DNA of 64,000 nt, from NCBI RefSeq assembly GCF_003094615.1, contig NZ_QDKO01000025.1:124001-188000 (forward strand), in the 5' to 3' direction. Both the position numbers and the translations under genes were made by a program. Origin of the DNA: Caulobacter radicis (GTDB lineage: Bacteria > Pseudomonadota > Alphaproteobacteria > Caulobacterales > Caulobacteraceae). Below the pieces are notes generated by a model, which had not been told where the DNA came from, did not search any database, and worked only from the letters and a program-made list of their open reading frames with translations. Of this stretch, positions 1,660 to 57,878 are shown one piece after another (the first letter of the stretch is position 1; every line of letters begins with the position of its first letter).

Positions 1660-1685
1660 AACGGTCAGGCTTGGCCGCCGGTTCC
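1660..1685 (-). promoter_or_regulatory. SigT/EcfG-type promoter for the TIGR02587-TIGR02588 pair
   Basis: On the minus strand GGAAC (1685-1681) is followed by 17 bases and CGTT (1663-1660). This is an exact match to the alphaproteobacterial general-stress sigma consensus. The predicted transcript starts about 23 bases before TTG 1631 and contains its GGGAGG ribosome site. Confidence 0.72.
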
Positions 1686-1756
1686 TGGCAGGCCAGCAGG
1701 CCATGTTGATTTGCAGGGACACGAGGGCCTGGCGACCTGTCGCAAGGGGGACTTCG

Positions 1757-2239
1757 TCACCCGCGGGCGCCCCACGGCTGACGCGTGAAGAAGGCGATGG
1801 TCGCCACGCCCGCGGCGACTACCAGGGCGTCCTCGACGAGGCCGCTGGGCGTCTGGCCAAACTTGATCATGGCCCGCTTGCGTCCCGCCAGGGTCAGGTA
1901 GGCCAGCGGCACGGCGGTCGCGATCGCCACGCTCGCCCCGGCCTTCTCGCGACCGCGCGGCGCCAGGGCCGCGCCGGCGATGCCGGCGCTGGCGATCCGG
2001 GCCAGCAGGCCCAGGAAGACCGTGCGGTCGGGCGCGGTTTTCATCTTGTCGCCCAGCAGCTCGCCGATCCCCATGGCCAGGGCGCCGAACTTGAACAGCG
2101 GATGGTCGAGCAGGACGAGCTTGCCGGGCGTTGAACGCCCCGCAAGGCGGGCCGAGGCGATAGTGGCCATCGGGGTCATCGACCGGGCGCTGGCGACGGC
2201 GCCGATGAGGGCGGAGGGGATCAGGGCGGTGTTGGTCAT
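1757..2239 (-). CDS. DUF4126-like membrane protein
   Basis: 160 residues, rich in Ala and Gly, with short hydrophobic helices throughout and the repeated small-residue pattern typical of DUF4126-type membrane proteins (LIGAVASARSMTP near the start, LGDKMKTAPDRT in the middle). I start at the ATG in front of TNTALIPS; a frame extension of six residues upstream adds nothing family-like. Function is unknown. It stands alone on the minus strand, 125 bases downstream of the TIGR02587 promoter region and 91 bases from the stop of the MarR gene, with which it could be co-transcribed. Confidence 0.6.
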   Translation of the reverse strand: MTNTALIPSALIGAVASARSMTPMATIASARLAGRSTPGKLVLLDHPLFKFGALAMGIGELLGDKMKTAPDRTVFLGLLARIASAGIAGAALAPRGREKAGASVAIATAVPLAYLTLAGRKRAMIKFGQTPSGLVEDALVVAAGVATIAFFTRQPWGARG

Positions 2240-2330
2240 GTCGGCTGAACACCCCACCCGCCCGCGAGGTTCAGAGCTTTAACAATGAATTGGTCGATCC
2301 TGGCGCGAGGAGGTCGTCTAAGAGCGGCGA

Positions 2331-2822
2331 TCAGTCTCGGAGCGCCGTCAGCAGCGCCTCGTTCATCGCCTGCAGCTCGCTGCGCAAGGCGGCGACTTGA
2401 GCGTCGGTCAACGGCAACTGGCGCACGACGGAGCGCCGCGCCTCCAGGGCCTTCTCGCGCAGGGCCCAGCCTTGGGGCGTCAGATCGACCCAAACCCTGC
2501 GTTCGTCCAGGTCATCGCGCGAGCGGACAAGCAGGCCCTTGCTCTCCATGCGTTTGACCAACGGTGTGACAGCGCCGGTGTCCATGCACAGGATTCGCCG
2601 AAGGTCGCCCATCGCCGCCCGACCATTCTCCTGCCACAGCGAAATCAGAACGAGATACTGCGGATGGGTAAGGCCCAAGGGCGCGAGCATCTCGCGATAG
2701 AGCCTCGTCACCAGGCTGTCTGATGTCTGCAGCGCCAGGCAGAGCTGTTGATCGACCCGCAATTCGTCGAACGCGCCTTGCGACCCGATCGGGAACGCGG
2801 TGACAGGATCTTTCTGCGCCAT
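2331..2822 (-). CDS. MarR-family regulator, OhrR-like
   Basis: 163 residues, longer than most MarR proteins because of an N-terminal tail of about 20. The segment LRVDQQLCLAL places a cysteine where OhrR proteins carry their peroxide-sensing cysteine, and LGLTHPQYLVLISLW is the typical OhrR first helix pair. The wing of the winged helix is visible as RSRDDLDERRVWVDLT. In OhrR, oxidation of this cysteine by organic hydroperoxides releases DNA. No ohr gene is in view; the only divergent neighbour is the hybrid kinase at 2931. The shared gap holds a perfect inverted repeat that could be its operator. Regulation of the kinase, itself, or both is inferred from position only. Confidence 0.82.
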   Translation of the reverse strand: MAQKDPVTAFPIGSQGAFDELRVDQQLCLALQTSDSLVTRLYREMLAPLGLTHPQYLVLISLWQENGRAAMGDLRRILCMDTGAVTPLVKRMESKGLLVRSRDDLDERRVWVDLTPQGWALREKALEARRSVVRQLPLTDAQVAALRSELQAMNEALLTALRD

Positions 2823-2878
2823 ATGTCAGGTTCTAGACCAACTTCGCCAAGACATCAAAAGGTCGGCCGGAGTCGAGA

Positions 2879-2894
2879 ATATCGACATCGATAT
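2879..2894. promoter_or_regulatory. candidate operator, perfect 7-base inverted repeat
   Basis: ATATCGA-CA-TCGATAT sits between the divergent MarR gene and hybrid kinase gene, 36 bases before the kinase start. The size and symmetry fit a MarR-dimer site, and the flanks are AT-rich against a GC-rich background. Binding by the adjacent MarR protein is an inference. Confidence 0.45.
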
Positions 2895-5212: not shown

Positions 5213-5238
5213 GGAACCGTCTGGCGAGTGCTGTGGTT
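5213..5238 (+). promoter_or_regulatory. possible SigT/EcfG-type promoter (GGTT variant)
   Basis: GGAAC (5213-5217), 17 bases, then GGTT (5235-5238), which differs from the CGTT consensus at one base. It lies 68 bases before the start at 5306. The same GGTT variant occurs upstream of three other likely stress genes in this window. Confidence 0.45.
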
Positions 5239-6354: not shown

Positions 6355-6379
6355 AACCACGGGCAAGCCCGCCGGTTCC
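6355..6379 (-). promoter_or_regulatory. SigT/EcfG-type promoter (GGTT variant) for the DUF883-like gene
   Basis: On the minus strand GGAAC (6379-6375), 16 bases, then GGTT (6358-6355). The only mismatch to consensus is the first base of the -10 element. A transcript would begin about 30 bases before the start codon at 6318 and include its AAGGAG site. Confidence 0.58.
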
Positions 6380-13035: not shown

Positions 13036-13060
13036 AACCGCCCGCCGTCGCCGTTGTTCC
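13036..13060 (-). promoter_or_regulatory. SigT/EcfG-type promoter (GGTT variant) for the SRPBCC operon
   Basis: On the minus strand GGAAC (13060-13056), 16 bases, then GGTT (13039-13036). The predicted start of transcription is about 20 bases upstream of the SRPBCC ATG and includes its AGGAG site. Confidence 0.6.
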
Positions 13061-13179: not shown

Positions 13180-13204
13180 GGAACGCGCGCTTGGACCTCT
13201 CGTT
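13180..13204 (+). promoter_or_regulatory. SigT/EcfG-type promoter for the redox-enzyme operon
   Basis: GGAAC (13180-13184), 16 bases, CGTT (13201-13204): an exact consensus match on the plus strand. It is back-to-back with the GGTT-type promoter at 13036-13060, so two stress operons diverge here. Confidence 0.75.
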
Positions 13205-13257: not shown

Positions 13258-14244
13258 ATGCGCAATCTGCATTCACGCCCAACCGGCTCCCGCCCGATCG
13301 GAGTGCAAACCATGTTTGGTGGCGATCGCCTATCGCGCCTTGGCGCCTTCAGCCCGCAGTTTCCTGACGCCGACGCCCTGCACAAGGGCCTGGCGCACTG
13401 GAACCACTATCGCCTGTCGCCCGAGGCCCCGAGCGCTGACTGGCGCGACGCGATCGCACGAGAGCGCCTCATGAAGGAGGTGGAGGGCGAGTTCATCGAA
13501 GCCTTCCGCGCCCACGTCGCGCCGCTGGTCGAGACGGTCCCGAAGGAGGCCGAAGCCTTCGTGTCCTGGTTCGAGGCGCTCAAGGACCATGGTCCCGGCC
13601 AATGGGACCCGTTGTTCGACTGGCTGCAGGGCGCGGCCAGCCTCGAGGACATCAAATGGTTCCTGACCCAGGAGGCGGCGGGCGAGGCCGGTTTCGACGA
13701 TCTGGTCGCCTTGACCCAGGTCAAGATTCCCGACCGCGCCAAGCTGGAACTGGCCCGCAACTATTGGGACGAGATGGGTCGCGGCAGCGTCAAGGGCATG
13801 CACGGCCCGATGCTCTCGCGAACGACCGCGACCCTGGGCCTGACACCGACCATCGACACCACCCTGTGGCAATCGCTTTGCCTGGCCAACACCATGACGG
13901 CTTTCGCCACCACGCGCCGCTATGCGTGGCACTCGGTCGGCGCTTTGGGCGTGGTCGAACTGACAGCGCCCGGCCGGGTGACCTGCGTCGATGCTGGTCT
14001 CAAGCGTGTCGGCGTCTCGCCAGAAGCCCGAAAGTACTTCGCGCTTCACGCCCATCTGGATGTCGAGCACTCCAAGGCCTGGAACACCGAGGCCCTGCTT
14101 CCGCTCGTGGCGGAGGATCCCATGCGCGCCCGGTACATCGCCGAAGGCGCGGTGATGCGTCTGATCTGCGGTGAGCAGTGCTTTGAGACCTATCGCGCCC
14201 ATCTTTGGGCCCACGCCCGCCCATTGGTCTACGCGGCCGAGTGA
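13258..14244 (+). CDS. iron-containing redox enzyme family protein (haem-oxygenase-like fold)
   Basis: 328 residues from ATG 13258, which lies downstream of the promoter and has GGGAG upstream; the ATG at 13312 is an alternative. The protein is almost all helical and carries Glu and His residues of the PqqC/haem-oxygenase-2 type: LMKEVEGEFIEAF, EAAGEAGFDDLV, ELARNYWDEMGRG, and HLDVEHSKAW near the C-terminus. Members use a non-haem di-iron centre for oxidations or desaturations. Its substrate is unknown. Two small genes follow with 5 and -4 base spacing, forming one transcript from the promoter at 13180. Confidence 0.78.
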   Translation: MRNLHSRPTGSRPIGVQTMFGGDRLSRLGAFSPQFPDADALHKGLAHWNHYRLSPEAPSADWRDAIARERLMKEVEGEFIEAFRAHVAPLVETVPKEAEAFVSWFEALKDHGPGQWDPLFDWLQGAASLEDIKWFLTQEAAGEAGFDDLVALTQVKIPDRAKLELARNYWDEMGRGSVKGMHGPMLSRTTATLGLTPTIDTTLWQSLCLANTMTAFATTRRYAWHSVGALGVVELTAPGRVTCVDAGLKRVGVSPEARKYFALHAHLDVEHSKAWNTEALLPLVAEDPMRARYIAEGAVMRLICGEQCFETYRAHLWAHARPLVYAAE

Positions 14245-21233: not shown

Positions 21234-21258
21234 GGAACGGCCGGATGGGCGGGCGGTT
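21234..21258 (+). promoter_or_regulatory. SigT/EcfG-type promoter (GGTT variant) for hemerythrin copy 2
   Basis: GGAAC (21234-21238), 16 bases, GGTT (21255-21258), 35 bases before the ATG at 21293. The catalase gene downstream may be read from it as well. Confidence 0.6.
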
Positions 21259-21292: not shown

Positions 21293-21829
21293 ATGGCCGT
21301 CACGGCGAAGACCAAAGCCAAACAGAAATCCGCACGGGCCGCCACCAAGGCGCAGGCCGCCCCCAAGACGCGCGGCCAAGACGCCATCGCTCTGCTGGAG
21401 GCCGATCACCGCCAGGTCGAGGACTATTTCGAGGCCTATGAGGGTCTGACCGACCCGGCCGCGAAGAAGGCCCTGGCCGACAAGATCTGTCTGGCCCTGA
21501 AGGTCCACACCCAGATCGAGGAAGAGTTCTTCTACCCACCGGCCCGAGAGGCGACGGGCGATGGCGATCTGATCGACGAAGCCATCGTCGAGCATATGGG
21601 CGCCAAGACCCTGATCGCCCAGATCGAGGCCGGGGCGCCGGACCAGCCGCTCTATGACGCCAAGGTCAAGGTGCTGGGTGAGCAGGTCCGCCACCATGTC
21701 GAGGAAGAGGAAAGCGAGCTCTTTCCCGAGGTGCGCGCCAGCGACCTGGATCTCGTCGCGCTCGGCGCGAAGCTTTCGGCCCGCAAGGCCGAACTGATGG
21801 CCCAACTCGCCCCGCCGTCCGCGCCTTAA
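21293..21829 (+). CDS. hemerythrin-domain protein (copy 2)
   Basis: 178 residues from ATG 21293 (MAVTAKTKAKQK); an earlier in-frame start would lie inside the promoter spacer. A Lys/Ala-rich tail precedes a hemerythrin core with the candidate ligands EADHRQVEDYF, KVHTQIEEEFFYP, IVEHMGAK and VRHHVEEEE. The core is closely similar to copy 1 at 7967, including the identical word LALKVHTQIEEE. It differs in the tail and in genomic partner: here a catalase follows 66 bases later, which points to peroxide defence. Confidence 0.86.
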   Translation: MAVTAKTKAKQKSARAATKAQAAPKTRGQDAIALLEADHRQVEDYFEAYEGLTDPAAKKALADKICLALKVHTQIEEEFFYPPAREATGDGDLIDEAIVEHMGAKTLIAQIEAGAPDQPLYDAKVKVLGEQVRHHVEEEESELFPEVRASDLDLVALGAKLSARKAELMAQLAPPSAP

Positions 21830-21895
21830 GGCCCGCCGGCCAGCATAACCATCGCCCAGGCCTTAGGCCCCGCTTCAAATCGTCAGGATCTTCTC

Positions 21896-24034
<2,139 letters not shown>

Positions 24035-24623: not shown

Positions 24624-24869
24624 ATGACCAACACCACGCACGACGACCGGCGTTTCAGCGTTCACGCGCGCCACGCTGGCCCCCATCATGGGCGCATCGT
24701 GCGCGAGCCTTCCTTTGAGGCCGCCGCCGTCGCCTATGTCGAGGACCTCGCGGTCGCGCCGGACGAGGACGGCCAGATCAGCGTGGTGGTGCGTGACCTC
24801 GATACCGGCGGCGAGCACTGCTTCCGCATCGACCTGGAAACCGGCGAGACCGCGCCCTGCGGCGTTTGA
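24624..24869 (+). CDS. small hypothetical protein, DUF5961-like
   Basis: 81 residues after an AGGAG site. The order of words (RRFSVHARHAGPHHGRI, EPSFEAAAVAYVED, ISVVVRDLDTGGEHCFRIDL) gives two strands, a helix and two strands, as in the small DUF5961-type proteins of Caulobacterales; the family name is from memory and not certain. It stands just upstream of ku, in the same direction, with a 62-base gap, so it may be co-transcribed with it. Confidence 0.6.
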   Translation: MTNTTHDDRRFSVHARHAGPHHGRIVREPSFEAAAVAYVEDLAVAPDEDGQISVVVRDLDTGGEHCFRIDLETGETAPCGV

Positions 24870-24931
24870 GAACGAAACAGGCCGACCATCGTTTTCTCCC
24901 TGCGCCCCGGTGGGCGGCAAGGATGCTCGAC

Positions 24932-25828
24932 ATGGCTTATCGTCCAACCTGGCAAGGACATCTTCGGCTTTCGCTCGTGACCTGCCCGGTGGCGCTGTAC
25001 ACCGCCACCAACAGCGGTGGCGAGGTGCATTTCAACCTGATCAATCCGGACACCAACAACCGGATCAAGATGGTCACCACCGACCCTGACACCGGGCCGG
25101 TCGAGCGCGCCAAGCTGGTCAAGGGCTATGAGGTCTCCAAGGGCGAGTACATCCTGCTGACCCAGGACGAGATCAACGCCGTGAAGCTGGAGAGCACAAA
25201 GACCATCGACATCGAGCGCTTCGTGCCCGCCGAGGAGATCGACCGGATTTACTGGGACAATCCCTATTATCTGGCCCCCGACGGAAAGCTCGCCCAGGAA
25301 GCCTTCGCTGTGATCCGCGAGTCGATGGAGCGCTCGGGGCAGATCGCGCTGGGACGGGTCGTGATGTCGACCCGCGAGCGCCTCCTGGCGCTGGAGCCCC
25401 GCGGCAAGGGCATCCTGGCCTATACGCTGCGCACCGACGCCGAAGTGCGCAAGGAGGACGAGGTGTTCGGCTCGATCAGCGACAAGGCCGCCGACCCTCA
25501 AATGATCGCCATCGCCCAGAAGATCATCGAACAGCAGGAAGGCCCTTTTGACCCGGGCCAGTTCGTCGATCGCTACGAAGAGGCGCTCAAGGACCTGATC
25601 AAGGCCAAGCAGAAGGGCCACAAGATCGCCAAGGTCGAGGAGCCCGAGGACACCAATGTCATCGACCTGATGGCCGCCCTGCGCGCCAGCCTGGGCGGGA
25701 AGGACGCCGCGCCCGCCAAGTCCTCAGCCAAGCCCAAGCCCGCGGCCAAGGCGGCGACCAAGCCCGCCGTCAAGGCCAAGACCACCTCCAAAGCCGCCTC
25801 GCCCCACAAGGCCCGCAAGGCAGGCTAG
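24932..25828 (+). CDS. ku: Ku protein, non-homologous end joining
   Basis: 298 residues from ATG 24932 (MAYRPTWQGHLRLSLV), with AAGGA nine bases upstream; an ATG three codons earlier is too close to that site. The single Ku core domain runs to about residue 235 (CPVALYTATNSG, GYEVSKGEYILLTQDE, RIYWDNPYYLAPDG, LQ/HELR-free helical end). A Lys/Ala/Pro-rich tail of about 60 residues follows, which in bacterial Ku helps bind DNA and LigD. The homodimer rings broken DNA ends and recruits LigD, encoded convergently just beyond. The stop overlaps the neighbour's stop within CTAG. Confidence 0.93.
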   Translation: MAYRPTWQGHLRLSLVTCPVALYTATNSGGEVHFNLINPDTNNRIKMVTTDPDTGPVERAKLVKGYEVSKGEYILLTQDEINAVKLESTKTIDIERFVPAEEIDRIYWDNPYYLAPDGKLAQEAFAVIRESMERSGQIALGRVVMSTRERLLALEPRGKGILAYTLRTDAEVRKEDEVFGSISDKAADPQMIAIAQKIIEQQEGPFDPGQFVDRYEEALKDLIKAKQKGHKIAKVEEPEDTNVIDLMAALRASLGGKDAAPAKSSAKPKPAAKAATKPAVKAKTTSKAASPHKARKAG

Positions 25829-26379: not shown

Positions 26380-29019
26380 CTAGACCTTCCCTAGCCGACG
26401 GATAGCCGCCTCCAGCGGCCGCTCGCCCTCGCAGTAATCTTCCCAGGCTGCGAGCCTGCGCACCAAGCCCGGCGTCGTACGGACCGTATACTTGGCCGGA
26501 TCGAGGCCCTTTTTCACCTGGCTCCAGGTCAGCGGCATCGACACCGGCGCGCCCGGCCGCCCGCGCGGCGACAGCGGCGCCACGGCCGTGGCCATGCGGT
26601 CGTTGCGCAGATAGTCCAGGAAGATCTTTCCCCCGCGCTTGGCCTTGGCCATGACGATCAGATAGTTTTCCGGATCGTCGTGGGCCATGGCCTTGCAAAC
26701 GTCGCGGGCGAACGCCTTGGCGATGTCCCAATCCAGCCCTTCGGCCGATAGAGGCGTGACTACGTGCAGGCCCTTGCCGCCCGTGGTCTTGCAGAACGAC
26801 ACCAGGCCAAGGTCGGCCAGTCGGTCACGCACCTCGCGCGCGCCTTCGATCACCCGCTCGAACGGCACGTCCGGGGCGGGGTCGAGGTCAAAGACCAGGC
26901 GCCCCGGCTGCTCGGGCAGGAAGGGCTCACAGTTCCAAGGGTGTAGCTCCAGGGCCCCGACCTGGGCGGCGGCGACCAGAGCCTCGATCTTGTCGAACTG
27001 CAGATAGGGTTTGCGGTCGCCCCAGACGCTCACCTCGGAGATCAGGGCCGATTGACCCTGGCCGGCATGGCGCTGGAAGAACTTCTGCTCGCCCTGGACG
27101 CCATCGGGCATGCGGATCATCGAGCAGGGCCGGCCGCGCAAATGCTCGATCATCCAATCTCCCACCGCCTCATAATATTGCGCCAGATCGAGCTTGGTGA
27201 CCGGCCGGCCGTCGGCCGCGTCAGGCCAGAGCGCCTTGCCCGCGTTGGACAGGGTCTGGCCCATCACCACCGCCGAGCCCCGGGGACTGACACTGGCCGC
27301 CTTGACCGTGACGCTCGCGCCCTTCTGGGCCCTGGGCTCGGCGAGCGCCGTCGCGGGGGATGCGGGCGCTTCTGCCTCGACCTCGGCGGCGGGCTTGTCC
27401 TCGCGCAGGCCCTTGAAGGCGGCTTGGCGCAGGAGCCCGTCGGCCGTGAAGCCCTCGTATTCGATCTCGGCCACCAGGTCGGGCCGCAGCCAATGAACCT
27501 CGCCAACGCCGCCGCGGGACGGGCCCTTGCTCGCGAACGGGCTCTTGGCGGTCTCCAGGGCCTTAAGCCTCGGCAGCAGGATCGAAAGCTTGTCGCGGCC
27601 AAACCCGGCGCCGATCCGACCGACATGGACCAGTTGACCGTCGCGATGGACCCCGGCGATCAAGGACCGAAATGCGCCGGCGGTGGTCGTATAGCCACCG
27701 ATCACCACTTCATGGCCGGCCCGGCACTTGGACTTGGTCCAAGCTTCACCCCGGCCCGAGCGGTAGGGCGCGTCCAGGCGCTTGGAGACGATGCCCTCCA
27801 GGTCCATCCGGCAAGCCGACAGCAGCACCGCATCGCCTGCGGTGATGAAGTGATCGACGAAGCGCAAAACCCCGTCGCCCCCGGCGACGTGGCGGGCCAG
27901 CCGCGCCTTGCGGGCCGACAGCGGCAGGTCACGCAGGTCCTCCAGGCCGTCGAACAGCAGGTCGAAGACGAAGAACACCAGGTTTACGGTGTTCTTTTGC
28001 GAGATTGCCGCCTGTAGGGCCGCGAAGTCGGGGGCGCCGGTATGATCGAGCGCGACGACCTCGCCATCGATGATCCCGTCGCCTAGGCCCGCGCCAGCCT
28101 GGGTGATCTCCGGGAACTTGGTCGACCAGTCCAGCCCTTTGCGGGTGCGTAAGGCCGCCTTGCCGCGTTCAGTGCGCAACTGCATCCGGTAGCCGTCGAA
28201 CTTGATCTCGTGGGCCCAACCGGGTCCGGACGGCGGCTTGTCGGCGGGCTTGGTCAGCTGCGGCTCGATGAAGACCGGCAGCACCTTGGCGCGCTTGACC
28301 TTCGCCTGGCCACCCCTCGTCTGGGATTCGTCCGGCGCGATCAGCCCCGGCGGCGCGCCGTCGTCGCGATCGCTCTGCCAGATCGCGCCGGCCGGCGCCC
28401 CCTCCCCGGTCATGAACGGCGTGGCGGCATTGCCCTTGCCGCTGGCGATCTCGGCCATGGTCCGTCGCGAGGCGATCGAGCGATCCGCATCCGTGGGTCC
28501 GGACCGATTGCCCGGCTGGGCGGCCTCGTCGCGGTGCTTGATCAGCATCCAGCTAGCCCGTCCCCGAGCGTCGCGCTTGGTGCGTACGATCACCCAGGAG
28601 CCATGCATGCGGCCGCCTTCCATGACGAACTTCAGCTCGCCCTTGGCCAGGGCCGCGCCGATCTTTTCGAACCCCTTCTCCGGCGCCCAGTAGCCGCGAT
28701 CCCAAAGCATCACCGTGCCGCCGCCGTATTGCCCCTTGGGAATGGAGCCTTCGAAGTCGCCGTAGTCGAGGGGGTGGTCCTCCACCTCCATGGCCAGCCG
28801 CCGGTCGGCCGGGTCGAGCGAGGGTCCCTTGGGCACGGCCCACGATCGGAAGGTCCCGTCATACTCAAGGCGCAGGTCGAAATGCAGGTGACTGGCCGCG
28901 TGCTTCTGGATGACGAAGCGCAAAGCCTGCGAGGGAGCGATCCTGGCGCGCCCCGACGGCTCGGCCGTCTTCGAGAAATCGCGCATCGCCTGGTACTGTT
29001 TGAGCTTGTTATCCGCCAT
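26380..29019 (-). CDS. ligD: multifunctional DNA ligase LigD
   Basis: 879 residues from the ATG before [11 protein letters not shown], with AAGGAG upstream. Domain order is phosphoesterase, ligase, polymerase, as in Pseudomonas LigD. The phosphoesterase (about 30-170) has [16 protein letters not shown] and [19 protein letters not shown]. The ATP-dependent ligase has the adenylated Lys in EIKFDGYR (near 272) and GEVVALD, followed by an OB fold ending [12 protein letters not shown]. The polymerase/primase (about 590-879) has [11 protein letters not shown] and the metal-binding VFDLDPAPD. With Ku it trims, fills and seals double-strand breaks. A 126-base gap separates it from the DUF3597 gene. 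Confidence 0.95.
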
Positions 29020-29145
29020 GGCCGCTCCTTCGAGGAGCCAAACGGCCAGGCCGCGCCGGTGATCCGTCGGAGGGGCGACGCCGAGGCTGCGATCCAGAAG
29101 GAAAGCCACTGGCGGCTCGGATGAGCCCGCGCCGCCAGCAAAGCG

Positions 29146-30168: not shown

Positions 30169-30219
30169 GGTCGGCGTCTCCATCGGTTTCGCGATCGCTC
30201 CCGGGCGGGGCGGCAACTG

Positions 30220-32578: not shown

Positions 32579-33444
32579 CAGGCGAGCGCCTGGGCGGGAC
32601 GGATGCGCCGGAACGCCGCCTCGACCAAACCAAAGAGGCCGAAAGCCGCCAAGCCCAAGGCGATCAGGCCCAGGACCCAGGATCCGAGCGGCTGGCGCTC
32701 AAGCGCCTGCAAGGCGCCGCCCCAACTATGGACGTCGGCGCTACGCGCTTCCAGCCCCGCCTTGATCAGGAAGACGCCGGCCGGCAATGTGGCCAAGCCC
32801 CGCGCTCCATAGCCGATCCTGGCCAGGGGCGCGACCACCCGGCACAGCCGCGCATCACATGAAAGGCGCTTGGAAAAATCCTGCATCAGGCCCTGGATGA
32901 CGTTGCCTATACCGACCCCGACAAGGGTCAGCCCCGCCAGCAGCAACAGCGTCTCGCCGTAGGGCCAGTTCAGGATCGCGGCAGCCGCGCCGTGGGCGGC
33001 CTGTTCCTCATCGGCTTCTCCAACATCCTCGAAGGCGTCGAGCAGTTCCAGGCCGCAGAGCCCAAGGCCGCCGTAGATTAGTCCGCTGACGGCTTGGCCG
33101 ACGCGCACGGCGATAGCCTTGGGCGAGACGCCCTGGCGATCGGCGTCGAGGCCTGCCTGCAGGCCGCGCCAGACCGCAAAGCCCAGCAGACCCAGCGACA
33201 CCAGAGCCACGATCACCAGCCCTGGCGGCCAAGCGGCCCAGGCCGCCAGCATCGCCTTGGCGCCGCGCGCCCGCGGCGTCATATCGACCGCGGCTAGGAG
33301 AACGATCGCGCCCAGGCCGAGATAGACGACGCCACGCGCGGCGTAGCCGAGCCGACCGGCCCATTCGAGCCCCTGAATGATCTCGTCCCGCGCCGCCAGG
33401 CGCCTCAGACGCCGCGCCCAAGGCTGTGCTTGTGCTGATCCCAC
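32578..33444 (-). CDS. DUF1206 membrane protein
   Basis: 288 residues from GTG 33444, with GAGGA upstream. There are six hydrophobic helices in three repeated pairs; each unit opens with a segment like LGYAARGVVYLGLGAIVL, VGQAVSGLIYGGLGL or IGYGARGLATLPAGVFLI. That triple Ala-Arg-Gly repeat is the DUF1206 signature. Function unknown. It is the first gene of a two-gene stress transcript with DUF2252, suggesting a membrane protein paired with a cytoplasmic kinase-like enzyme. Confidence 0.87.
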   Translation of the reverse strand: MGSAQAQPWARRLRRLAARDEIIQGLEWAGRLGYAARGVVYLGLGAIVLLAAVDMTPRARGAKAMLAAWAAWPPGLVIVALVSLGLLGFAVWRGLQAGLDADRQGVSPKAIAVRVGQAVSGLIYGGLGLCGLELLDAFEDVGEADEEQAAHGAAAAILNWPYGETLLLLAGLTLVGVGIGNVIQGLMQDFSKRLSCDARLCRVVAPLARIGYGARGLATLPAGVFLIKAGLEARSADVHSWGGALQALERQPLGSWVLGLIALGLAAFGLFGLVEAAFRRIRPAQALA

Positions 33445-33497: not shown

Positions 33498-33523
33498 AAC
33501 GACGCCCTCGCGGCTAACGTTCC
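33498..33523 (-). promoter_or_regulatory. SigT/EcfG-type promoter for DUF1206-DUF2252
   Basis: On the minus strand GGAAC (33523-33519), 17 bases, CGTT (33501-33498), exact to consensus, 54 bases before the GTG start. Confidence 0.75.
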
Positions 33524-33665
33524 GCGCTCGATGCTGCGCCCTGTCAAAAGATCGCCGGGCGCCCCTTTGGGCTTCTTCCAGGTCAGCGTGTGCAACCTCT
33601 CCTAGCACGAGGTGTTTCGGCCCTGCTCGCGGCGGCGCGGGCCCGTCTCCCAGAGTTGTTCCCCC

Positions 33666-36600
33666 ATGTCTCAGGTCGCCAGCCCCGCCCCTGCCGTTGG
33701 CGAAACCCTGGCGCCAGGCGCGCGCAACCACCGCGCCTTAAGCGCGACGAGGCTCCAGGCCCCGGCTTCTGCGGTGGCGCTGATCCTGTCGCGCAAAGCG
33801 GCCAAGGGCGGGTCGACCGTGGTTCACCTGGCGTCCAGTGAGCGCCGGGCCGAGGAAATCGGTCGGGCTCTGGCCGGCTTCGCCCCCGACCTCGAGGTCC
33901 TGGTGCTGCCGCCATGGGACTGCCTGCCCTATGATCGCGCCTCGCCGTCGCGCGATGTGATGGGGCGGCGCATGGCCATCCTTGGACGACTTGCCCAGCC
34001 GGCCGGCCGGCGGGTTTTGGTCACCTCGCCCGAGGCCATCGTCCAGAAGCTCCCGCCGGCGGCGCTGGCGCACGAGACGTTGTTCGACCTTCAGCGCGGC
34101 GCCGTGCTCGATCGCCGGGCCCTTGGCGATTTCGCCGCCGCCGCCGGCTATGTCGCAGACGACCGTATCGACGAGCCCGGCGAGATCGCCTTCCTGGGCG
34201 AAGTCATCGATATCTTTCCTGCGGACGCCGCCTGCCCGGTGCGTATTGCGCTCGACGCCGATCGGATCGCCGAGATGCGACCCTACGACCCTTTGAGCCA
34301 GCGCTCGACAGGCGAGCTCGAGACCCTGCGCCTTGGCCCGGCGAGCGAGCTGATCCTCAAGCCCGGCGCCGATGGCGCAGCACCCGAACGCTTTCCCGGG
34401 GCCGAGCACGCTATGGCCCGCCACTACGGCGCCCTGGTTTCGCTGTTCGAGCTTTTGCCCAAGGCCAGGCTTTCGATGGACGTCAAGGCCGCCGCCCGTC
34501 TTGCCGAGGTCGAGGCCCATGTGCTGGACGCCTTCGAGGCGCGCAAGACGCTTGGCGGCGCGGGTCCTGAGCCCGGCGCTCCTGATGAGCTCAACCTGCT
34601 GGGCGCAGACCTCAAGGCGGCCCTCGCCAGCTGGTCGGTCGTGCGCCTGGAGACGCGCGGCTTCGAACTGGTGGCGAACCTGGCCCTGCAGCGCAACCCT
34701 GGCCGGGCCTTTTGTGATCTCGTCGACCATCACCGCCAAGCCGGGCGTCGGGTAGTTTTGACGGGATTGCGCCAGGAGCTTCGGCCGCTCGCCCGGGCTC
34801 TCGCCCGCGGGCTCGACCTCAAGCCTCAGCCCTGCGCGGACTGGGCGCAGGCGCTCGCCAGCTCCGCGGGCGCGGTCGTCAGCATCGAGCTGGATCTCGA
34901 CACCGGCTTCATCCACGCGGCCAGCCAGCTCGCCGTGATCGCCGCCAGCGACGTGGTTGGGGGGCGCACGGCCGCACGCGGCGCGACCAACCTGCAGGAT
35001 CTTCTGGCCGAACCCGACCTTCGTCCCGGCGACGTCGTCTTACATGAGGACCATGGGGTAGGCGTGCTGCGTGACCTTACGAGGATCGAAATCGACGGCG
35101 TGGATCATGACACCCTGCAGCTGGAGTATCACGGCGGCGACAGTCTGCAGGCGCCCGTGGAGGAGATCGGCCGCATCTGGCGCTATGGGGCCGAAGAAAG
35201 CGCGGTGACCCTCGACCGGCTCAACGGCGAGGGTTGGGCCAAGCGACGCGCGCAGGTTCATCACCACCTGGAAGCGGCCGCCGCCCGCCTGGTGGCCCTG
35301 GCCAAGGCGCGCGAGGAAAGGATCTGCCCGTCCATCGTTCCGCCCAAGGCCGCCTACGCCAGGTTCGCCGCCCGCTTTGCCTATCCCGAGACGCCCGATC
35401 AGTCGGCGGCGATCGAGGCGGTTCTGGCCGACCTCGCCAGCGGACGTCCCATGGACCGGCTGGTGTGCGGCGACGTCGGCTTTGGCAAGACCGAGGTGGC
35501 CTTGCGGGCCGCCGCCGCCGTGGCCTTGAGCGGACGCCAGGTGGCCCTGGCCGCGCCGACGACGGTCCTGGCTCGCCAACACGTCGAAACCTTCAAGCGG
35601 CGGTTCGCCGGCACGGGGATCGGCGTTGCCCACCTGTCGCGCCTGGTCAGTCCCGCCGAAGCCAAGGCGGTCAAGCAGGGCCTGGAGGCGGGCCAGATCG
35701 GCGTGGTGATCGGCACCCAGTCCCTGGCGGGCAAGGATATCGGCTTTAGCGATCTTGGGCTGATGATCATCGACGAGGAGCAGAAGTTCGGCGCAGCGTT
35801 GAAAGAGAGGTTGCGCGGCATGGCCAGGGACGGCCATCTCCTGACCCTGACGGCCACGCCAATTCCCCGCACCCTGCAAGCGGCGATGATCGGTGTGCAG
35901 GACGTCAGCGTCATCGCCAGTCCGCCGGCCCGTAGGCGTCCGATCCGCACCTTTCTGGCGCCCTTCGATGCGGCCACCCTGCGCATGGCGCTGATGCGCG
36001 AAAAGCGCCGGGGCGGACAGAGCTTCGTCGTCGCACCGCGCATCGAGGACATCGGTCAGCTCCAGGCTCAGCTGGCCAGCCTCGTCCCAGAGCTTGAAGT
36101 GCGCGTGGCCCATGGCGATCTGGCCGCCGAGACGGCGGATGCGGTGATGGTCGGCTTCGCCGATGGCGACGGCGACGTGCTGCTGGCCACCAACATCATC
36201 GAAAGCGGGCTGGATGTGCCGCGCGCCAACACCATGATCGTCTGGCGGCCCGACCGATTTGGCCTGGCTCAGCTTCATCAGCTGCGCGGCCGGGTCGGCC
36301 GCGGTCGCATTCAAGGCGTGGCCTATCTGTTGTCGGATCCGCAGGAGGACCTTTCCGAGGCCACCCGCGCGCGGCTTTCGACGCTGGAGGCGTTCGATCG
36401 TCTGGGATCAGGCCTGGCGATCAGCGCCCGGGACCTGGACCTGCGCGGCGGCGGGGATCTGGTCGGCGAGGATCAGGCCGGACATATGCGGATGATCGGC
36501 GCCGGGCTTTACCAGCGCCTGCTGGCCAGGGCGCTGCGGGTCGCGCGCGGCGAGACCGAGGCCGAAGACTGGACGCCCGATCTGCAGCTTGGCGAGCCGG

Positions 36601-36995
36601 GCGCGATCCCGACCGTCTACGTGCCCGACGCAGTGACCCGGATCAATCTCTATGCCCGGCTGGCGAGACTCGAAGACCAAGGCCAGATCGACGCTTTCGA
36701 GGAGGAACTGGAGGATCGCTTCGGCGCCCTTCCCCCGCTGACCAACACCCTGCTCGACCAGGCTCGATTGCAGCGCCTGGCCAAGAGCGCCGGGGTCCGT
36801 CAGGTGCGCGCCGGCCCCAAGGGGGTGTCGCTGACCCTGGCCACGCCCGCGCCGGCCAAGGCTAAGAGGGCCCTATCGCGATGGCGCGACGTCCTGACGG
36901 TGCGCGAGGACAAGCTGGTCGTGGCCCTGGCCTGCGACAGCGAACCCGAGCGGCGAGCGCTGGCTCAGGCTCTGCTTTCCGCGCTGAGCGGTTGA
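33666..36995 (+). CDS. Mfd-family (transcription-repair coupling factor-like) translocase
   Basis: 1109 residues, close to normal Mfd length. The N-terminal UvrB-like region has VLVLPPWDCLPYDRASPS. A CarD-like RNA-polymerase-binding domain follows (GDVVLHEDHGVG, near 453). The superfamily 2 motor has Walker A GDVGFGKT (near 601) and a motif II of DEEQ where Mfd proteins normally have DEEH. Motif VI region QLHQLRGRVGRGR is normal. A C-terminal TRCF-type domain is present (RLQRLAKSAGVRQVRAGP). It should push stalled RNA polymerase off DNA, but the divergence suggests a second, specialised copy. It diverges from DUF1206. No strong ribosome site precedes the chosen ATG. Confidence 0.85.
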   Translation: MSQVASPAPAVGETLAPGARNHRALSATRLQAPASAVALILSRKAAKGGSTVVHLASSERRAEEIGRALAGFAPDLEVLVLPPWDCLPYDRASPSRDVMGRRMAILGRLAQPAGRRVLVTSPEAIVQKLPPAALAHETLFDLQRGAVLDRRALGDFAAAAGYVADDRIDEPGEIAFLGEVIDIFPADAACPVRIALDADRIAEMRPYDPLSQRSTGELETLRLGPASELILKPGADGAAPERFPGAEHAMARHYGALVSLFELLPKARLSMDVKAAARLAEVEAHVLDAFEARKTLGGAGPEPGAPDELNLLGADLKAALASWSVVRLETRGFELVANLALQRNPGRAFCDLVDHHRQAGRRVVLTGLRQELRPLARALARGLDLKPQPCADWAQALASSAGAVVSIELDLDTGFIHAASQLAVIAASDVVGGRTAARGATNLQDLLAEPDLRPGDVVLHEDHGVGVLRDLTRIEIDGVDHDTLQLEYHGGDSLQAPVEEIGRIWRYGAEESAVTLDRLNGEGWAKRRAQVHHHLEAAAARLVALAKAREERICPSIVPPKAAYARFAARFAYPETPDQSAAIEAVLADLASGRPMDRLVCGDVGFGKTEVALRAAAAVALSGRQVALAAPTTVLARQHVETFKRRFAGTGIGVAHLSRLVSPAEAKAVKQGLEAGQIGVVIGTQSLAGKDIGFSDLGLMIIDEEQKFGAALKERLRGMARDGHLLTLTATPIPRTLQAAMIGVQDVSVIASPPARRRPIRTFLAPFDAATLRMALMREKRRGGQSFVVAPRIEDIGQLQAQLASLVPELEVRVAHGDLAAETADAVMVGFADGDGDVLLATNIIESGLDVPRANTMIVWRPDRFGLAQLHQLRGRVGRGRIQGVAYLLSDPQEDLSEATRARLSTLEAFDRLGSGLAISARDLDLRGGGDLVGEDQAGHMRMIGAGLYQRLLARALRVARGETEAEDWTPDLQLGEPGAIPTVYVPDAVTRINLYARLARLEDQGQIDAFEEELEDRFGALPPLTNTLLDQARLQRLAKSAGVRQVRAGPKGVSLTLATPAPAKAKRALSRWRDVLTVREDKLVVALACDSEPERRALAQALLSALSG

Positions 36996-37076: not shown

Positions 37077-37102
37077 GCAACATTGCCGTGCGCCGGCGCG
37101 TT
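37077..37102 (+). promoter_or_regulatory. weak SigT/EcfG-like promoter
   Basis: GCAAC (one mismatch, 37077-37081), 17 bases, CGTT (37099-37102), 33 bases before the ATG at 37135. Position and gene type fit; the mismatch makes it uncertain. Confidence 0.35.
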
Positions 37103-41265: not shown

Positions 41266-41471
41266 CGGACGGCGCCGAATTCAGGCCCCTGATGCGCCTC
41301 CTCGCAACTGCACAATAAACTCTGCCACGCCCCGAACGCCATAGCCGCTACTCCCTGAGATGCCTCGGAAACAACGGGAGAGAGCAAGGGTTCCGGGAAT
41401 ATTTTTTGATGGCTCCCGGCACAGATTGATCGCCTGATCGTTGTGCACTCGCAGCAATTTGGAGATGTCGG

Positions 41472-43613: not shown

Positions 43614-45708
<2,095 letters not shown>

Positions 45709-45712
<4 letters not shown>

Positions 45713-52616: not shown

Positions 52617-54300
52617 TCATAGACCCCTGATGACGCACGTCACGCCCGTAGGAGCGAAGGTGACGTCTATGCCGCCGTCCACGTCACGATCCAGGGCGCG
52701 GGTCAGCAGCCGCATCCCGAAGCCGATCTGCCGGGGCTCTTCGACGGGCGGCCCGCCCCGCTCGCGCCATTCCAGCCTCGTGCGCCCATCAGCGTCCTCG
52801 CAATCGATGGACACGCGTCCCTGCTCGCGTGTCAGAACACCATACTTGACCGCATTGGTGGCGAGTTCATGCAAGGCCATCGCAACGGCGACCGCCTTCT
52901 GCGTCGGCAGTTGGACATCTTCCCCGCCAACGGCGAAGCGCGCCGCGCCGAAAGGTTCGATCGCCTCATGGATGATCCGCATCAGGCTGGCGGTGCGCCA
53001 GTCGGCCTGGGTGAGGACATTATGGGCGCGCGACAGGGCCAAAAGGCGGCCCTCGAACGCCTCTCTTGCCCCAGGCTGGGCCGCATCTCCGCAAAAGGTC
53101 TGGCCCGCCAAGGCTGAACCGTCGCCAGAGTGTTCTTGACGCGATGATTGGGCTCATTGACCAGCAAAGACTTGGCGTCGAGGGCCTGCCTCAGGTCGGT
53201 GAAGTCGGTGAAGGTGCAGACAGCCAGAGGTCGTCCGGTTCCATCCGCGACCCGCTTGCAATCCCCCGATAGTCGCACGATCCGTCCATCAGGACGGCGG
53301 TAGAACTGCTCCTCTTTCTCAATCGTCTCGCCTGAAAGCGCGCGGGCCCCAGGATAGTCCTCAGAAGCAAACGGGGCGCCGTCGGCGTGCATGGCGCCAT
53401 AAACGCCAAATTGTTCCGCCGAGCGGGTCAGAACGTCGTGGCCGACGATGAGCGATGCGGCCCGGTTGTAAAGAACGACCTGGCGAGTCTCGAGCGAGAG
53501 CAGCACCTCCCCCACCGGCATCTCCTCCATTACAGTGTGCAGCTGGGCTTCCGCCTTCTGATTCTCCTGGCTGGTCAGGACCGCCTCGGTGACATCGAGC
53601 GCCTGGACGAAGAGCCGCGCCTGGCCATCGGACGCAGGCTCGATCCGCCGAAGCAGAATGTCGAAATAGCGCTCCTCCGGCGGGACGTCAGGACGGGCTT
53701 GGAAGGGCGTGCGCATCTGGCGCCCCACATAGGGCTGGTCACCGTCCATGACCCTGGTCATCAGCGCGAAAAGTGCTGGCGCTGTTTCAGGCGCGACCTG
53801 ACGATAGGAGCGGTCCTGTATCTCGCCGCGTCCCCGGAATTCGACAAGCTCGGCGCTGGCGAACGCCACCACGAGGTCATGACCTCGATAGATCGCCACC
53901 AAGCCCGGCGCATTGCGGAAAAGCTCGACGAACCGAGCGTCCTCCTCGGCCTTGCGGCGGGCGGCCCCATCACGTTCGGCCAGCAGCTGCCGGCTGATCG
54001 CTCTTTAGGCCTCGTGACTACGACAACCAGCAGGCCCGAGGCCGCGTAGAGACAAAGCGCCGAGAGTTCGCCTGACGAGACATGGGCAAGATCGCCCCGG
54101 CTCGGCATCATCAACATCCAGACCCCGACCAGTCCGGTCGCAAGGGCGCTTAGGCCGCCCACGCGGCCCAAGACCAGACAACTCAGGAGGATCGTAGGGA
54201 AGAGAAGCGCAAAGCGCGCTCCGCCGGGCCAGACCCGCTCGGTCAGAGTATGCAGCCAGAGCGCCAGAAGCGCCGCTAGAGCGCCGCCGATCAGTCGCAC
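52617..54300 (-). pseudogene. membrane HWE-family sensor kinase with two single-base deletions
   Basis: Three frames must be joined. The first (from GTG 54300, or from an ATT at 54354 if the real start was lost) gives a four-helix DUF4118-like membrane domain ending VVVTRPKE. Loss of one base near 54000 shifts to a frame with QLLAERDGAARRKAEEDAR, a PAS domain (VVLYNRAASLIVGHDV) and the HWE box NHRVKNTLATVQ. Loss of one base near 53110 then shifts to AGQTFCGD, FEGRLLALSRAHNVL and the HATPase (ALHELATNAVKYGVL, GFGMRLLTR) ending at 52617. The box reads NEPNHRVKN where NELNHRVKN is normal. An exact stress promoter still drives it. Confidence 0.82.
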
Positions 54301-56206: not shown

Positions 56207-56268
56207 CGCTTCCCGCACGCTCATGCGCAACCCGTCCAAAGCACGGGCGCCGGGGCGGCGGCGATCGT

Positions 56269-56622
56269 TCAGTCTCCCTGCCTGCTGGCTTCAGACTGCG
56301 GAACCCACAGCGGCTCCAGCCAAGGCTCCCGATGTCTGGTCCAGCTCTCATACTGCGGAACAAAGACGCCGGCCTCGTCGAAGCGGCCAAGGGATACTTC
56401 GTACTCGCGCGTTTCGTCCGCGCCGGCGTTCTCGGCGAAGACTCTGGAACCGCAGCGTGGGCAGAAGTAGCGGACATAGCCGGGCGAACTCGACCAACCG
56501 ACAACATCACCCTCGATGGTGACCTGGCTTGGGGCGAACACGACAAAAAGGTTGAACGCCGATGCATGGGCCTTGCGGCAGGTCAACCGCGCGGCAAGGC
56601 TCTCCAGCTCATCTTCGTTCAA
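56269..56622 (-). pseudogene. N-terminally truncated GFA-family gene
   Basis: The frame gives LTCRKAHASAFNLFVVFAP, YFCPRCGSRVF and DEAGVFVPQYESW, which is the middle and end of a GFA-type zinc protein. The first 25-30 residues with the CxCG motif and the first Cys of CHCxxC are missing; only a TTG with no ribosome site starts this frame. An intact relative is at 6905. A decayed gene is the simplest reading; a separate functional short form is less likely because zinc ligands are lost. Confidence 0.6.
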
Positions 56623-57530
56623 GGCTTATCCAGGTTTCGCGCCAAGTCGCCTCCTTCTCTATCGCCTTTGCCGCCCGGGAGACAACGCAAGGCGCGGCTT
56701 TGCCCGCTCGTCCCATCCAGGCGCCGCCTCGGCGTTGACCGCCTTCACGGCCATGAAACCCATCTGGCGAGCATGTCCGCCGTGGCCGCCCCGGCTAAAC
56801 CCTCGTCGCCCGCCAGCAGGACGGTCGCACCGCCGCCAGAGGCCGCGATCGGTCCTCGCGAACCGGAACGCCTCGCGAATGGCGCCTCGCGGCCGACGGG
56901 GCCAGAGCGCCACTTTCGCTTCCCCCTTGGTGACGATCTTGGCCCAAAGTCGGGCCCTTCCAACGGAGGCGTCCACTCGATCGGGCCCGCGCGGCTTCAA
57001 ACCGTCATAGAGCGGAAAGAAGCGAACGATTGGGAACAAGCGCTACCGTTCAGGGTTTGATCCTACGTCAAATCACCTTTGACGATCCGCCGCTCTGTTC
57101 CCCCTTCGGGGCGGCGTCAGCAGGCAGGACGCACGATCCGCCAGGAGCGACCGTCCTCCTCTGTACTGGGCTCTGGCGCATGCACGTTGTCGCTGGAGCC
57201 CATATCTTCCGGCAGGAGCTATTGCGCCAACGAGCCCGCCGGTTCGTCCTTGCAGACTTCCACTCTGCGGTCAGCGTGAGCTTCCAGCGCGCCGAGCGGC
57301 CTTCAACGTCGCCAGGTAGGCGCGAACTCGTGAGACGTTCACGCCCATCAGTGGACTCCAGTACGCAGCGGACCGGTCGTTCATCTCTACCTCGTAACCA
57401 GCATGTTTTTTCCTCTTCGAAGGAAGTCTCAGCAATGACTGGCGTTCCCTCTTGCGGATGAGCGCTCGCCGCCCAAGATCTCAATCCATGGCGAAGCCGC
57501 GCCCCTTTTTGGCCGGCCATCTCGCGGCGC
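56623..57530. other. 900-base gap without a supported gene
   Basis: No frame combines a start, ribosome site and family-like protein. Minus-strand frames between 56745 and 57039 have some coding feel (LYDGLKPRGPDRVDAS in one, ATVLLAGDEGLAGAA in another) in different frames, as in a decayed gene next to the truncated GFA gene. From 57040 to 57470 the sequence is less GC-rich than its surroundings and contains the inverted repeat at 57066-57084. Confidence 0.4.
57066..57084. repeat. perfect 7-base inverted repeat in a less GC-rich gap
   Basis: CGTCAAA-5 bases-TTTGACG. It could be a protein-binding site or small hairpin. No gene start lies close by on either strand. Confidence 0.35.
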
Positions 57531-57800
57531 TCAGGCAGCCTGCGCTGTATTTTCAGGCTCGATGAGCGACACGCCGCCGGCCGCCACGCACCAGCGTCCG
57601 ACCAATCGCTCCAACCGGTCATAAACCCATACTTCTCCGGCCCCATGCATGGCGTGCGCCTGCCGGGCCAGCGCCATCGCACGACGCTCGGCCTGACCAC
57701 CGCTTTCAAAGCATGTGACTTCACCGCTGTCGGCGTTCGACAGGCGCCACCCGCTGTCGGGATTGGGCTGAACGATGAAAACGCCGAGTGCGCCGCGCAT
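57531..57800 (-). CDS. small hypothetical protein, DUF2188-like
   Basis: 89 residues from ATG 57800 with GAGGA upstream. Two strands (GVFIVQPNPDSGWRLSNADS), a helix (ERRAMALARQAHAMHG) and two strands (GEVWVYDRLERLVGRW) make a small alpha-beta protein of the same design as the one at 14250. It is read from an exact stress promoter 53 bases upstream. Function unknown. Confidence 0.7.
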   Translation of the reverse strand: MRGALGVFIVQPNPDSGWRLSNADSGEVTCFESGGQAERRAMALARQAHAMHGAGEVWVYDRLERLVGRWCVAAGGVSLIEPENTAQAA

Positions 57801-57852
57801 GAGGTCCTCGAAAGAATGGCCAGCGCCAATCGGCGCAGTACTGAGCCGCCCA

Positions 57853-57878
57853 AACGTCGCTCGCCTCGAACCCGTTCC
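57853..57878 (-). promoter_or_regulatory. SigT/EcfG-type promoter for the DUF2188-like gene
   Basis: On the minus strand GGAAC (57878-57874), 17 bases, CGTT (57856-57853), exact to consensus. Transcription should start about 45 bases before ATG 57800. Confidence 0.72.

What the first reader, a model, noticed from the sequence alone, without database searches (positions are those of the whole stretch)
1660..57878. A dispersed SigT/EcfG regulon packed into one 64-kb region
Seven exact GGAAC-N16/17-CGTT sites (1660, 13180, 30220, 30307, 33498, 54389, 57853) lie 25-85 bases before genes and point the right way. By hand estimate at about 68% G+C, chance gives about one such site on both strands of 64 kb. 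The genes they serve include several of unknown function, so the sites link them to the general stress response.
Basis: partly seen in the sequence, partly recalled or inferred. Interest (0 to 1): 0.72.

Follow-up and report, generated by a model that had tools for sequence, protein, structure and literature searches.

The report
Stress-response promoter island in Caulobacter
A stretch of a Caulobacter chromosome carries many switches of the bacterium's general stress response, in front of repair, redox and unknown genes, and such a switch appears also to drive a second, accessory copy of the repair motor Mfd.

Summary
All seven sites exist; shuffles give 0.80 on average, never seven. Spacings 14/15 and 18/19 have no match in the window. 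The genome-wide total (68) is not above spacing controls (73 and 36); placement, clustering and conservation carry the case. Of 135 homologous loci in the genus, 64 keep an exact site upstream; none has one at 16 wrong spacings. The genome has the sigma-NepR-PhyR core elsewhere. I conclude that these are EcfG/SigT-type promoters of an accessory stress island: DUF2391, haem-oxygenase-like, DUF4142-DUF3597-LigD, flavoprotein, DUF1206-DUF2252, a broken HWE kinase, a 90-residue unknown. Variant boxes add hemerythrin-catalase and others.

Unexpected: the window's 'mfd' is an accessory Mfd (found in 11 of 75 genomes), not the housekeeping one. An EcfG-like promoter precedes it in 13 of 13 loci, against 0 of 12 housekeeping mfd genes; plasmid relatives repeat this less uniformly (11 of 14). 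A residue that belongs to E. coli Mfd's UvrA-contact triple is changed in 27 of 27 copies. Transcript starts and sigma dependence are untested.

The parts
1660..1685 (-). Site 1, GGAAC-N17-CGTT, before DUF2391
   Evidence: exact site in 13 of 20 DUF2391 loci
816..1631 (-). DUF2391/TIGR02587 membrane protein
   Evidence: Pfam; NCBIfam (272 bits, cut-off 183.7)
13180..13204 (+). Site 2, GGAAC-N16-CGTT
   Evidence: exact site in 22 of 30 loci, three of them over 340 bases upstream
13258..14244 (+). Haem_oxygenas_2 protein (ATG 13258 or 13312)
   Evidence: Pfam; starts
30220..30244 (-). Site 3, GGAAC-N16-CGTT, before DUF4142-DUF3597-LigD
   Evidence: also before DUF4142 in C. zeae (L057), C. endophyticus (L058), G022 (L285), G005 (L277)
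29563..30183 (-). DUF4142 protein, lipoprotein-like start
   Evidence: Pfam; reading frame
29146..29535 (-). DUF3597 protein
   Evidence: Pfam
26380..29109 (-). LigD (ligase, phosphoesterase, primase-polymerase); operon with DUF4142-DUF3597 inferred from gaps under 40 nt
   Evidence: Pfam
24869..24893 (+). Weak variant AGAAC-N16-CGTT, 29 nt before Ku; kept in C. zeae and G022, absent in three other relatives checked
24923..25828 (+). Ku
   Evidence: Pfam
30307..30331 (+). Site 4, GGAAC-N16-CGTT
   Evidence: exact site in 8 of 30 loci, paralogues included
30364..31317 (+). Thioredoxin-reductase-like flavoprotein
   Evidence: Pfam; NCBIfam TIGR01292 135 bits, below cut-off 343
33498..33523 (-). 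Site 5, GGAAC-N17-CGTT, before DUF1206-DUF2252
   Evidence: exact site in 15 of 30 DUF1206 loci; a divergent exact site is present in 9 of 13 Mfd2 loci
32578..33444 (-). DUF1206 protein
   Evidence: Pfam
31337..32578 (-). DUF2252 protein
   Evidence: Pfam
33592..33616 (+). Promoter-like site of Mfd2: GCAAC-N16-TGTT
   Evidence: G[GC]AAC-N16/17-NGTT in 13 of 13 Mfd2 loci, 0 hits at 20 other spacings, 0 of 12 housekeeping mfd
33666..36995 (+). Accessory Mfd (Mfd2)
   Evidence: Pfam; PDB match 2eyq; TIGR00580 781 bits, cut-off 800; 36% to the genome's housekeeping mfd over the first 600 residues
54389..54413 (-). Site 6, GGAAC-N16-CGTT
   Evidence: two intact kinase homologues (L329, L330; 55-56% identical, elsewhere in their genomes) have an exact site upstream, three weaker ones (L331-L333) have none
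52617..54300 (-). HWE histidine kinase broken over three frames (DUF4118, PAS, HWE, HATPase pieces)
57853..57878 (-). Site 7, GGAAC-N17-CGTT
   Evidence: exact site in 6 of 25 loci, some one-mismatch site in 18 more
57531..57800 (-). 90-residue protein of unknown function
   Evidence: 17 of 75 genomes have a match; start
21234..21258 (+). Variant site GGAAC-N16-GGTT
   Evidence: kept in C. zeae, G022 and G005
21293..24034 (+). Hemerythrin-domain protein and long catalase
   Evidence: Pfam
37077..37102 (+). Variant site GCAAC-N17-CGTT before a pyridoxamine-oxidase-like gene (37135-37644)
   Evidence: kept in C. zeae and G022
13036..13060 (-). Variant site GGAAC-N16-GGTT before a polyketide-cyclase-like gene
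   Evidence: kept in G022, the one relative in which one search found the gene
6355..6379 (-). Variant site GGAAC-N16-GGTT before a protein with a weak glycine-zipper match
   Evidence: kept in G022
5213..5238 (+). Variant site GGAAC-N17-GGTT; weak, not kept in G022
41370..41394 (-). Variant site GGAAC-N16-TGTT, 104 nt before glgA (39601-41265)
   Evidence: kept in G022

Best explanation
The seven sites are promoters read by the general-stress sigma factor (EcfG family, called SigT in Caulobacter). They form an accessory stress island away from the sigma factor's own locus. Under stress, HWE/HisKA2 kinases lead to phosphorylation of PhyR, PhyR takes NepR away from the sigma factor, and RNA polymerase with that sigma starts at these sites. 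The products protect or repair: catalase and hemerythrin, a redox flavoprotein, membrane proteins, end-joining ligase LigD, and a second Mfd that clears stalled RNA polymerase. Shown here: sites, spacing, placement, clustering, conservation of both boxes, presence of sigma, NepR and PhyR genes. Taken from the literature: the partner switch (PMC6599016, passages) and the motif in Caulobacter (PMC4287350, passages). Inferred: that SigT rather than a related sigma reads them, that the genes are stress-induced, and what each product does.
For: Seven exact sites against 0.80 expected; none at spacings 14/15 or 18/19 in the window. 38 of 68 genome-wide N16/17 matches are promoter-placed, against 4 of 35 for N14/15. 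Clustering: 7 in 57 kb, 0.2% of random placements. Conservation: exact site upstream in 64 of 135 homologous loci, none at 16 wrong spacings. Core locus: NepR, EcfG-like sigma, PhyR (NF006623, 374 bits, cut-off 240), HWE/HisKA2 kinases, with 8 exact sites around. C. crescentus SigT motif GGAAC-N16-CGTT lies at the -35 region of mapped starts (n = 26; PMC4287350, passages). In Sphingopyxis granuli ku-ligD is in the regulon, up to 14 different -10 boxes occur, and GGAAC and GCAAC are the two most frequent -35 boxes (PMC7083833, passages). Mfd2 promoter.
Against: The genome-wide count of the motif is no higher than spacing controls, and 16 of 68 matches lie in coding DNA. In the 20 relatives searched the count is mostly not above the tool's reversed-pattern control either. 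Homologue counts are not independent, because relatives share descent; flavoprotein and orf90 homologues beyond close kin mostly lack an exact site (8 of 30 and 6 of 25). C. hibisci has no exact site in the 22.7 kb held around its LigD. I saw no expression data for this strain.
Confidence: 0.9

Rival explanations
1. The sites are promoters, but a related ECF sigma factor (an EcfG paralogue or a downstream one such as SigU) reads some of them.
For: Two EcfG sigma factors act in Rhizobium etli and in Sphingopyxis (PMC3892343, PMC7083833; passages). SigU is itself a SigT target in C. crescentus (PMC3073932, passages). Many orf90 homologues carry TGAAC-N16-CGTT instead of GGAAC, which may mean another reader.
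Against: The exact consensus equals the one assigned to SigT in C. crescentus; the core locus carries 8 copies. I did not count the ECF sigma genes of this genome.
Confidence: 0.08
2. The packing is incidental: stress genes, each with its own promoter, collected in a variable region of the chromosome; nearness has no regulatory meaning.
For: In G005 the homologues of DUF2391, the flavoprotein and orf90 lie hundreds of kilobases apart; those of DUF2391 and orf90 keep an exact site, that of the flavoprotein does not. In G022 LigD is missing while DUF4142-DUF3597 and the site stay. Neighbouring sites run on both strands.
Against: A recognisable version of the block, ending at Mfd2, recurs in G022 and G005, and 9 of 13 Mfd2 loci keep the divergent site with DUF2252.
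Confidence: 0.6
3. Chance matches in G+C-rich DNA.
For: The genome-wide total is not above spacing controls.
Against: 0 of 100 shuffles reach seven; by my gene calls none of the seven lies inside a gene; spacer letters diverge between species while both boxes stay.
Confidence: 0.02

Closest known systems
SigT/EcfG general stress response regulon of Alphaproteobacteria (Caulobacter crescentus SigT, Sphingopyxis EcfG, Sinorhizobium RpoE2)
   Same: Same boxes and spacing; sigma, NepR and PhyR genes at one locus; catalase, ku-ligD and an HWE kinase are among the targets reported for Sphingopyxis granuli (PMC7083833 passages).
   Different: Here at least seven promoters form an accessory cluster about a second Mfd, apart from the core locus; DUF2391, DUF4142, DUF1206-DUF2252 and orf90 were not met in the passages that I read.
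Mfd, transcription-repair coupling factor
   Same: Pfam domains of Mfd including the RNA polymerase-interacting domain, helicase and TRCF domains; 558 bits to E. coli Mfd 2eyq.
   Different: Below the curated Mfd cut-off (781 against 800), 36-38% to the genome's housekeeping Mfd, F185 position changed in 27 of 27 and R165 position in 13 of 27 examined copies, and an EcfG-like promoter.
Ku-LigD non-homologous end joining
   Same: Ku and LigD with ligase, phosphoesterase and polymerase domains, one gene apart.
   Different: LigD lies after two DUF genes behind a stress promoter; in other lineages an exact site stands at about the start of Ku (L098, L106) or 44 bases before the LigD match (L108, L121).

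Membership tests
EcfG/SigT promoter | -35 GGAAC and -10 CGTT with 16-17 bases between | tested here: met
   7 of 7 exact; N14/15 and N18/19 absent from the window
EcfG/SigT promoter | Placed shortly before a gene, in its direction | tested here: met
   28-88 nt (one 53 or 107) for 7 of 7; site 6 serves a broken gene; 5 of 7 by the automatic caller
EcfG/SigT promoter | Kept in related species | tested here: met
   64 of 135 loci for five of the genes, 0 at 16 wrong spacings; site 3 in four relatives
EcfG/SigT promoter | Genome encodes EcfG-type sigma, NepR and PhyR | tested here: met
EcfG/SigT promoter | Transcript start after the -10 box that depends on the sigma factor | not testable with these tools
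   needs start mapping in wild type and mutant
Mfd (TIGR00580 equivalog) | Score above the curated cut-off | tested here: not met
   Window 781, L359 774, L360 734, L369 749.5, cut-off 800; housekeeping copy 1006
Mfd (TIGR00580 equivalog) | UvrB-homology, RNA polymerase-interacting, helicase and TRCF domains | tested here: met
   Pfam; alignment to 2eyq (residues 230-376 not aligned)
Mfd (TIGR00580 equivalog) | UvrA-contact residues R165, R181, F185 (E. coli numbers) | tested here: not met
   R165 position: L 12, Q 1 in Caulobacter Mfd2, R in 14 of 14 plasmid Mfd2 and 12 of 12 housekeeping; R181 kept in all 39; F185 position: F in 0 of 27 Mfd2 and 12 of 12 housekeeping
Mfd (TIGR00580 equivalog) | Displaces stalled RNA polymerase and recruits UvrA | not testable with these tools
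   biochemistry
Mobile genomic island | tRNA border, integrase, odd base composition | tested here: inconclusive
   No tRNA in the window; G+C 64-70% in 4-kb steps; integrases were not searched for as such

The most novel reading that the evidence does not exclude
Alphaproteobacteria of at least three orders carry a second Mfd lineage that belongs to the general stress response. It is switched on by the EcfG sigma factor, lies in some cases in accessory or plasmid-borne stress regions near end-joining genes or HWE kinases, and has a changed UvrA-contact surface, so that under stress it removes stalled RNA polymerase without the usual hand-over to excision repair, at least in Caulobacter, where both the R165 and the F185 position are changed.
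Probability: 0.35. Interest if true: 0.75.

Novelty: new member of a known kind. Interest (0 to 1): 0.5.

Why it matters
The regulon itself is of a known kind, but it suggests testable stress functions for several conserved unknown families (DUF2391, DUF1206-DUF2252, DUF4142-DUF3597, orf90). If the accessory Mfd is really under the stress sigma factor, some alphaproteobacteria keep a separate RNA polymerase-clearing motor for stressed cells. That would make it testable whether a cell uses different coupling factors for growth and for stress, and whether stress repair is uncoupled from UvrA.

Tried and rejected
The tool's reversed-pattern control (65) has another composition and was not relied on.

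A common promoter for LigD in all relatives was rejected: of 80 LigD loci, only C. zeae and C. endophyticus show the window's arrangement (site, DUF4142, DUF3597, LigD); C. hibisci has no exact site in the stretch held. G005 has the arrangement too.

Bidirectional use of sites 3, 5 and 6 was considered, since their reverse complement reads TGAAC-N16/17-CGTT. For Mfd2 I dropped it: a GCAAC site nearer to the gene is better conserved, and TGAAC on that side is not kept in all loci.

Loss of UvrA binding in all Mfd2 was rejected as too strong: 14 of 14 plasmid copies keep R165 and R181.

A tree (38 rows) splits Mfd2 from the Caulobacter housekeeping Mfd at full support, but it is a quick FastTree run that warns of long branches and holds no rhizobial housekeeping Mfd, so it does not date the split. 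One partial copy (L344) was left out.

The absence of Mfd2 from 64 of 75 genomes is soft: the search scored at most 17 candidates per genome, used E 1e-60, and found no Mfd of either kind in 24 of 75.

Literature: in the listings of my ten searches I saw no paper that ties an Mfd to EcfG. In one search, 0 of 25 listed of 193 papers hold the term transcription-repair coupling factor. The main texts of PMC7083833, PMC3616915, PMC3892343 and PMC6180224 hold neither mfd nor helicase. Supplementary tables could not be opened, so a listing there is not excluded.
Full report
CHECK OF THE OBSERVATION. In 100 dinucleotide-preserving shuffles the mean is 0.80, the largest 5. In the window the exact boxes occur 4 times with 16 and 3 times with 17 bases between, and 3 times in all at spacers 12-15 and 18-22. 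Genome-wide controls with N14/15 (36 matches) and N18/19 (73 matches) have no match in the window. Distances to a plausible start codon are 28-88 nt, for site 2 53 or 107 depending on the start.

GENOME-WIDE PICTURE. The genome (5.57 Mb, 47 contigs) has 68 exact matches, no more than spacing controls. With a home-made gene caller, 38 of 68 are promoter-placed, 1 lies near a start but in coding DNA, 16 in coding DNA and 13 elsewhere; for N14/15 the numbers are 4 promoter-placed, 23 coding and 8 elsewhere of 35 (36 matches, one lost to my removal of duplicates); of N18/19 only the 11 that fell into fetched DNA were classed, none promoter-placed. An earlier, looser version gave 43 promoter-placed, 17 coding, 8 other; there two of the window's seven (54389, 57853) counted as 'other', because the caller missed a broken gene and a 90-codon gene. 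The densest cluster, 8 sites within 9 kb of contig C19, surrounds NepR, an ECF sigma gene, PhyR and two HWE/HisKA2 kinases: the core of the general stress response. The window is next: 7 in 57 kb, reached by 0.2% of random placements of the 59 sites left when the core contig's nine are set aside. G005, a complete relative, likewise has a core cluster and one further cluster (8 in 105 kb, 1.2% of placements), at a place other than its version of this island.

CONSERVATION. For five of the downstream genes I took homologous loci from 75 genomes of the genus: 30 of 48 listed matches for the haem-oxygenase-like gene, 30 of 35 for DUF1206, 30 of a much longer list for the flavoprotein, all 20 for DUF2391, all 27 for orf90, of which 25 aligned. 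An exact site lies within 400 bases upstream in 22 of 30, 15 of 30, 8 of 30, 13 of 20 and 6 of 25: 64 of 135. At 16 wrong spacings there is none in any of the 135. Spacer letters differ widely between orthologues and even 16 and 17 alternate, while both boxes stay. Three of the 22 lie over 340 bases upstream. The loci are related by descent, so these are not independent trials.

VARIANT SITES. GGAAC-N16/17-[AGT]GTT occurs six times in the window, five of them 26-104 nt before a gene; at nine other spacings 1 of 4 is so placed. In all own DNA fetched (window included) 9 of 20 are promoter-placed, against 0 of 8 for N14/15 and 1 of 9 for N18/19. The one before hemerythrin-catalase (21234) is kept in G005 at 85% protein identity; GCAAC-N17-CGTT before a pyridoxamine-oxidase-like gene (37077) is kept in C. 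zeae and G022; that before 5306 is not kept in G022. Flexible -10 boxes, and GCAAC as a frequent -35 box, are reported for Sphingopyxis granuli (PMC7083833, passages).

THE ISLAND. G022 has it with LigD missing, and G005 a diverged version that keeps the haem-oxygenase-like gene, hemerythrin-catalase, Ku, LigD, DUF3597, DUF4142, DUF2252 and ends at the same kind of 'mfd'. In other lineages an exact site stands at about the start of Ku (L098, L106) or 44 bases before the LigD match (L108, L121; their true starts were not determined). Ku-ligD control by EcfG is known from Sphingopyxis.

A SECOND MFD. The gene that I first took for housekeeping mfd is not that one. Copies like it (54-100% over the first 600 residues) were found in 11 of 75 genomes, 13 copies; the genome's housekeeping mfd is on another contig at 36%. 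Around the 13 copies (250 kb) there are 20 exact sites, against 19 for 16 wrong spacings together; around 12 housekeeping copies (230 kb, 8 of them from Mfd2-bearing genomes) 4, against 18. In 9 of 13 a divergent exact site serves DUF2252, with DUF1206 between in 5. On the gene's own side, G[GC]AAC-N16/17-NGTT begins 48-86 bases before the start in 13 of 13 (GCAAC in 12, GGAAC in 1), never at 20 other spacings, and in 0 of 12 housekeeping genes, one of which has a looser TGAAC match. That pattern was chosen after looking, so I tested it on relatives (45-51%) from plasmids: 14 of the 20 listed hits (of 110 records), leaving out five near-copies and one fragmented hit; starts were annotated for 8 and extrapolated for 6. 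11 of 14 have it at 16/17 against 5 hits at 20 other spacings. Of the 11, 8 begin 48-103 bases upstream, one lies 13 bases inside the annotated start, two lie over 200 bases off. By group: 9 of 10 rhizobial and 2 of 4 sphingomonad copies.

WHAT MFD2 MIGHT DO. The motor motifs, the RNA polymerase-interacting domain and the D7 DRFG motif align with E. coli Mfd. In E. coli, changing R165, R181 and F185 together disrupts the UvrA interaction and strand-biased repair, while RNA polymerase displacement stays and ATPase rises (PMC3025350, passages). The F185 position is never F in 27 Mfd2 and always F in 12 housekeeping copies; the R165 position is L or Q in all 13 Caulobacter Mfd2 but R in all 14 plasmid ones; R181 is kept throughout. 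I placed these numbers by an inferred offset of three residues in the 2eyq chain; all three letters then agree. I infer a changed, perhaps lost, hand-over to UvrA in Caulobacter Mfd2; single changes were not tested in the passages that I read. All four Mfd2 scored fall below NCBI's Mfd cut-off, which may be why 12 of 20 listed plasmid records name it DEAD/DEAH box helicase.

VERDICT. The kind is known (EcfG regulon); the members are new. The accessory Mfd behind its own EcfG-like promoter is the part worth following.

Noticed in passing
window 52617-54300 (-): HWE histidine kinase broken over three reading frames while its stress promoter (site 6) is intact; intact homologues in G082 and G045 (L329, L330) also have an exact site upstream. 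Assembly error not excluded.
   Followed up: partly
L247-L273 (orf90 homologues): More distant homologues of the 90-residue protein often carry TGAAC-N16-CGTT about 50 bases upstream instead of GGAAC; may mark another sigma factor.
   Followed up: no
window 30218, 33496, 54387 (+): Sites 3, 5 and 6 are near-palindromic: their reverse complement reads TGAAC-N16/17-CGTT.
   Followed up: partly
G000:C9:742659-743524 (L155): Second DUF2391 copy (79% identical) with its own exact site.
   Followed up: no
L285 (G022:C44:60001-80000): LigD absent although DUF4142-DUF3597, Ku-side genes and both sites remain.
   Followed up: partly
L098, L106, L108, L121; the 41 LigD loci classed 'Rhiz/other': Exact stress sites at about the start of Ku (Caulobacter) or just before the LigD match (Rhizobium). 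In the 41 mostly rhizobial LigD loci (903 kb) spacer 16 occurs 23 and 17 occurs 10 times, against 1-10 for each other spacer from 10 to 24.
   Followed up: partly
window 39601-47436: Glycogen block (glgA, branching enzyme, two amylase-family genes) beside Mfd2.
   Followed up: no
L359 (Pararhizobium qamdonense plasmid p3): Plasmid Mfd2 followed by an HWE kinase and a few kilobases from treY/treZ, on a plasmid typed conjugative.
   Followed up: no
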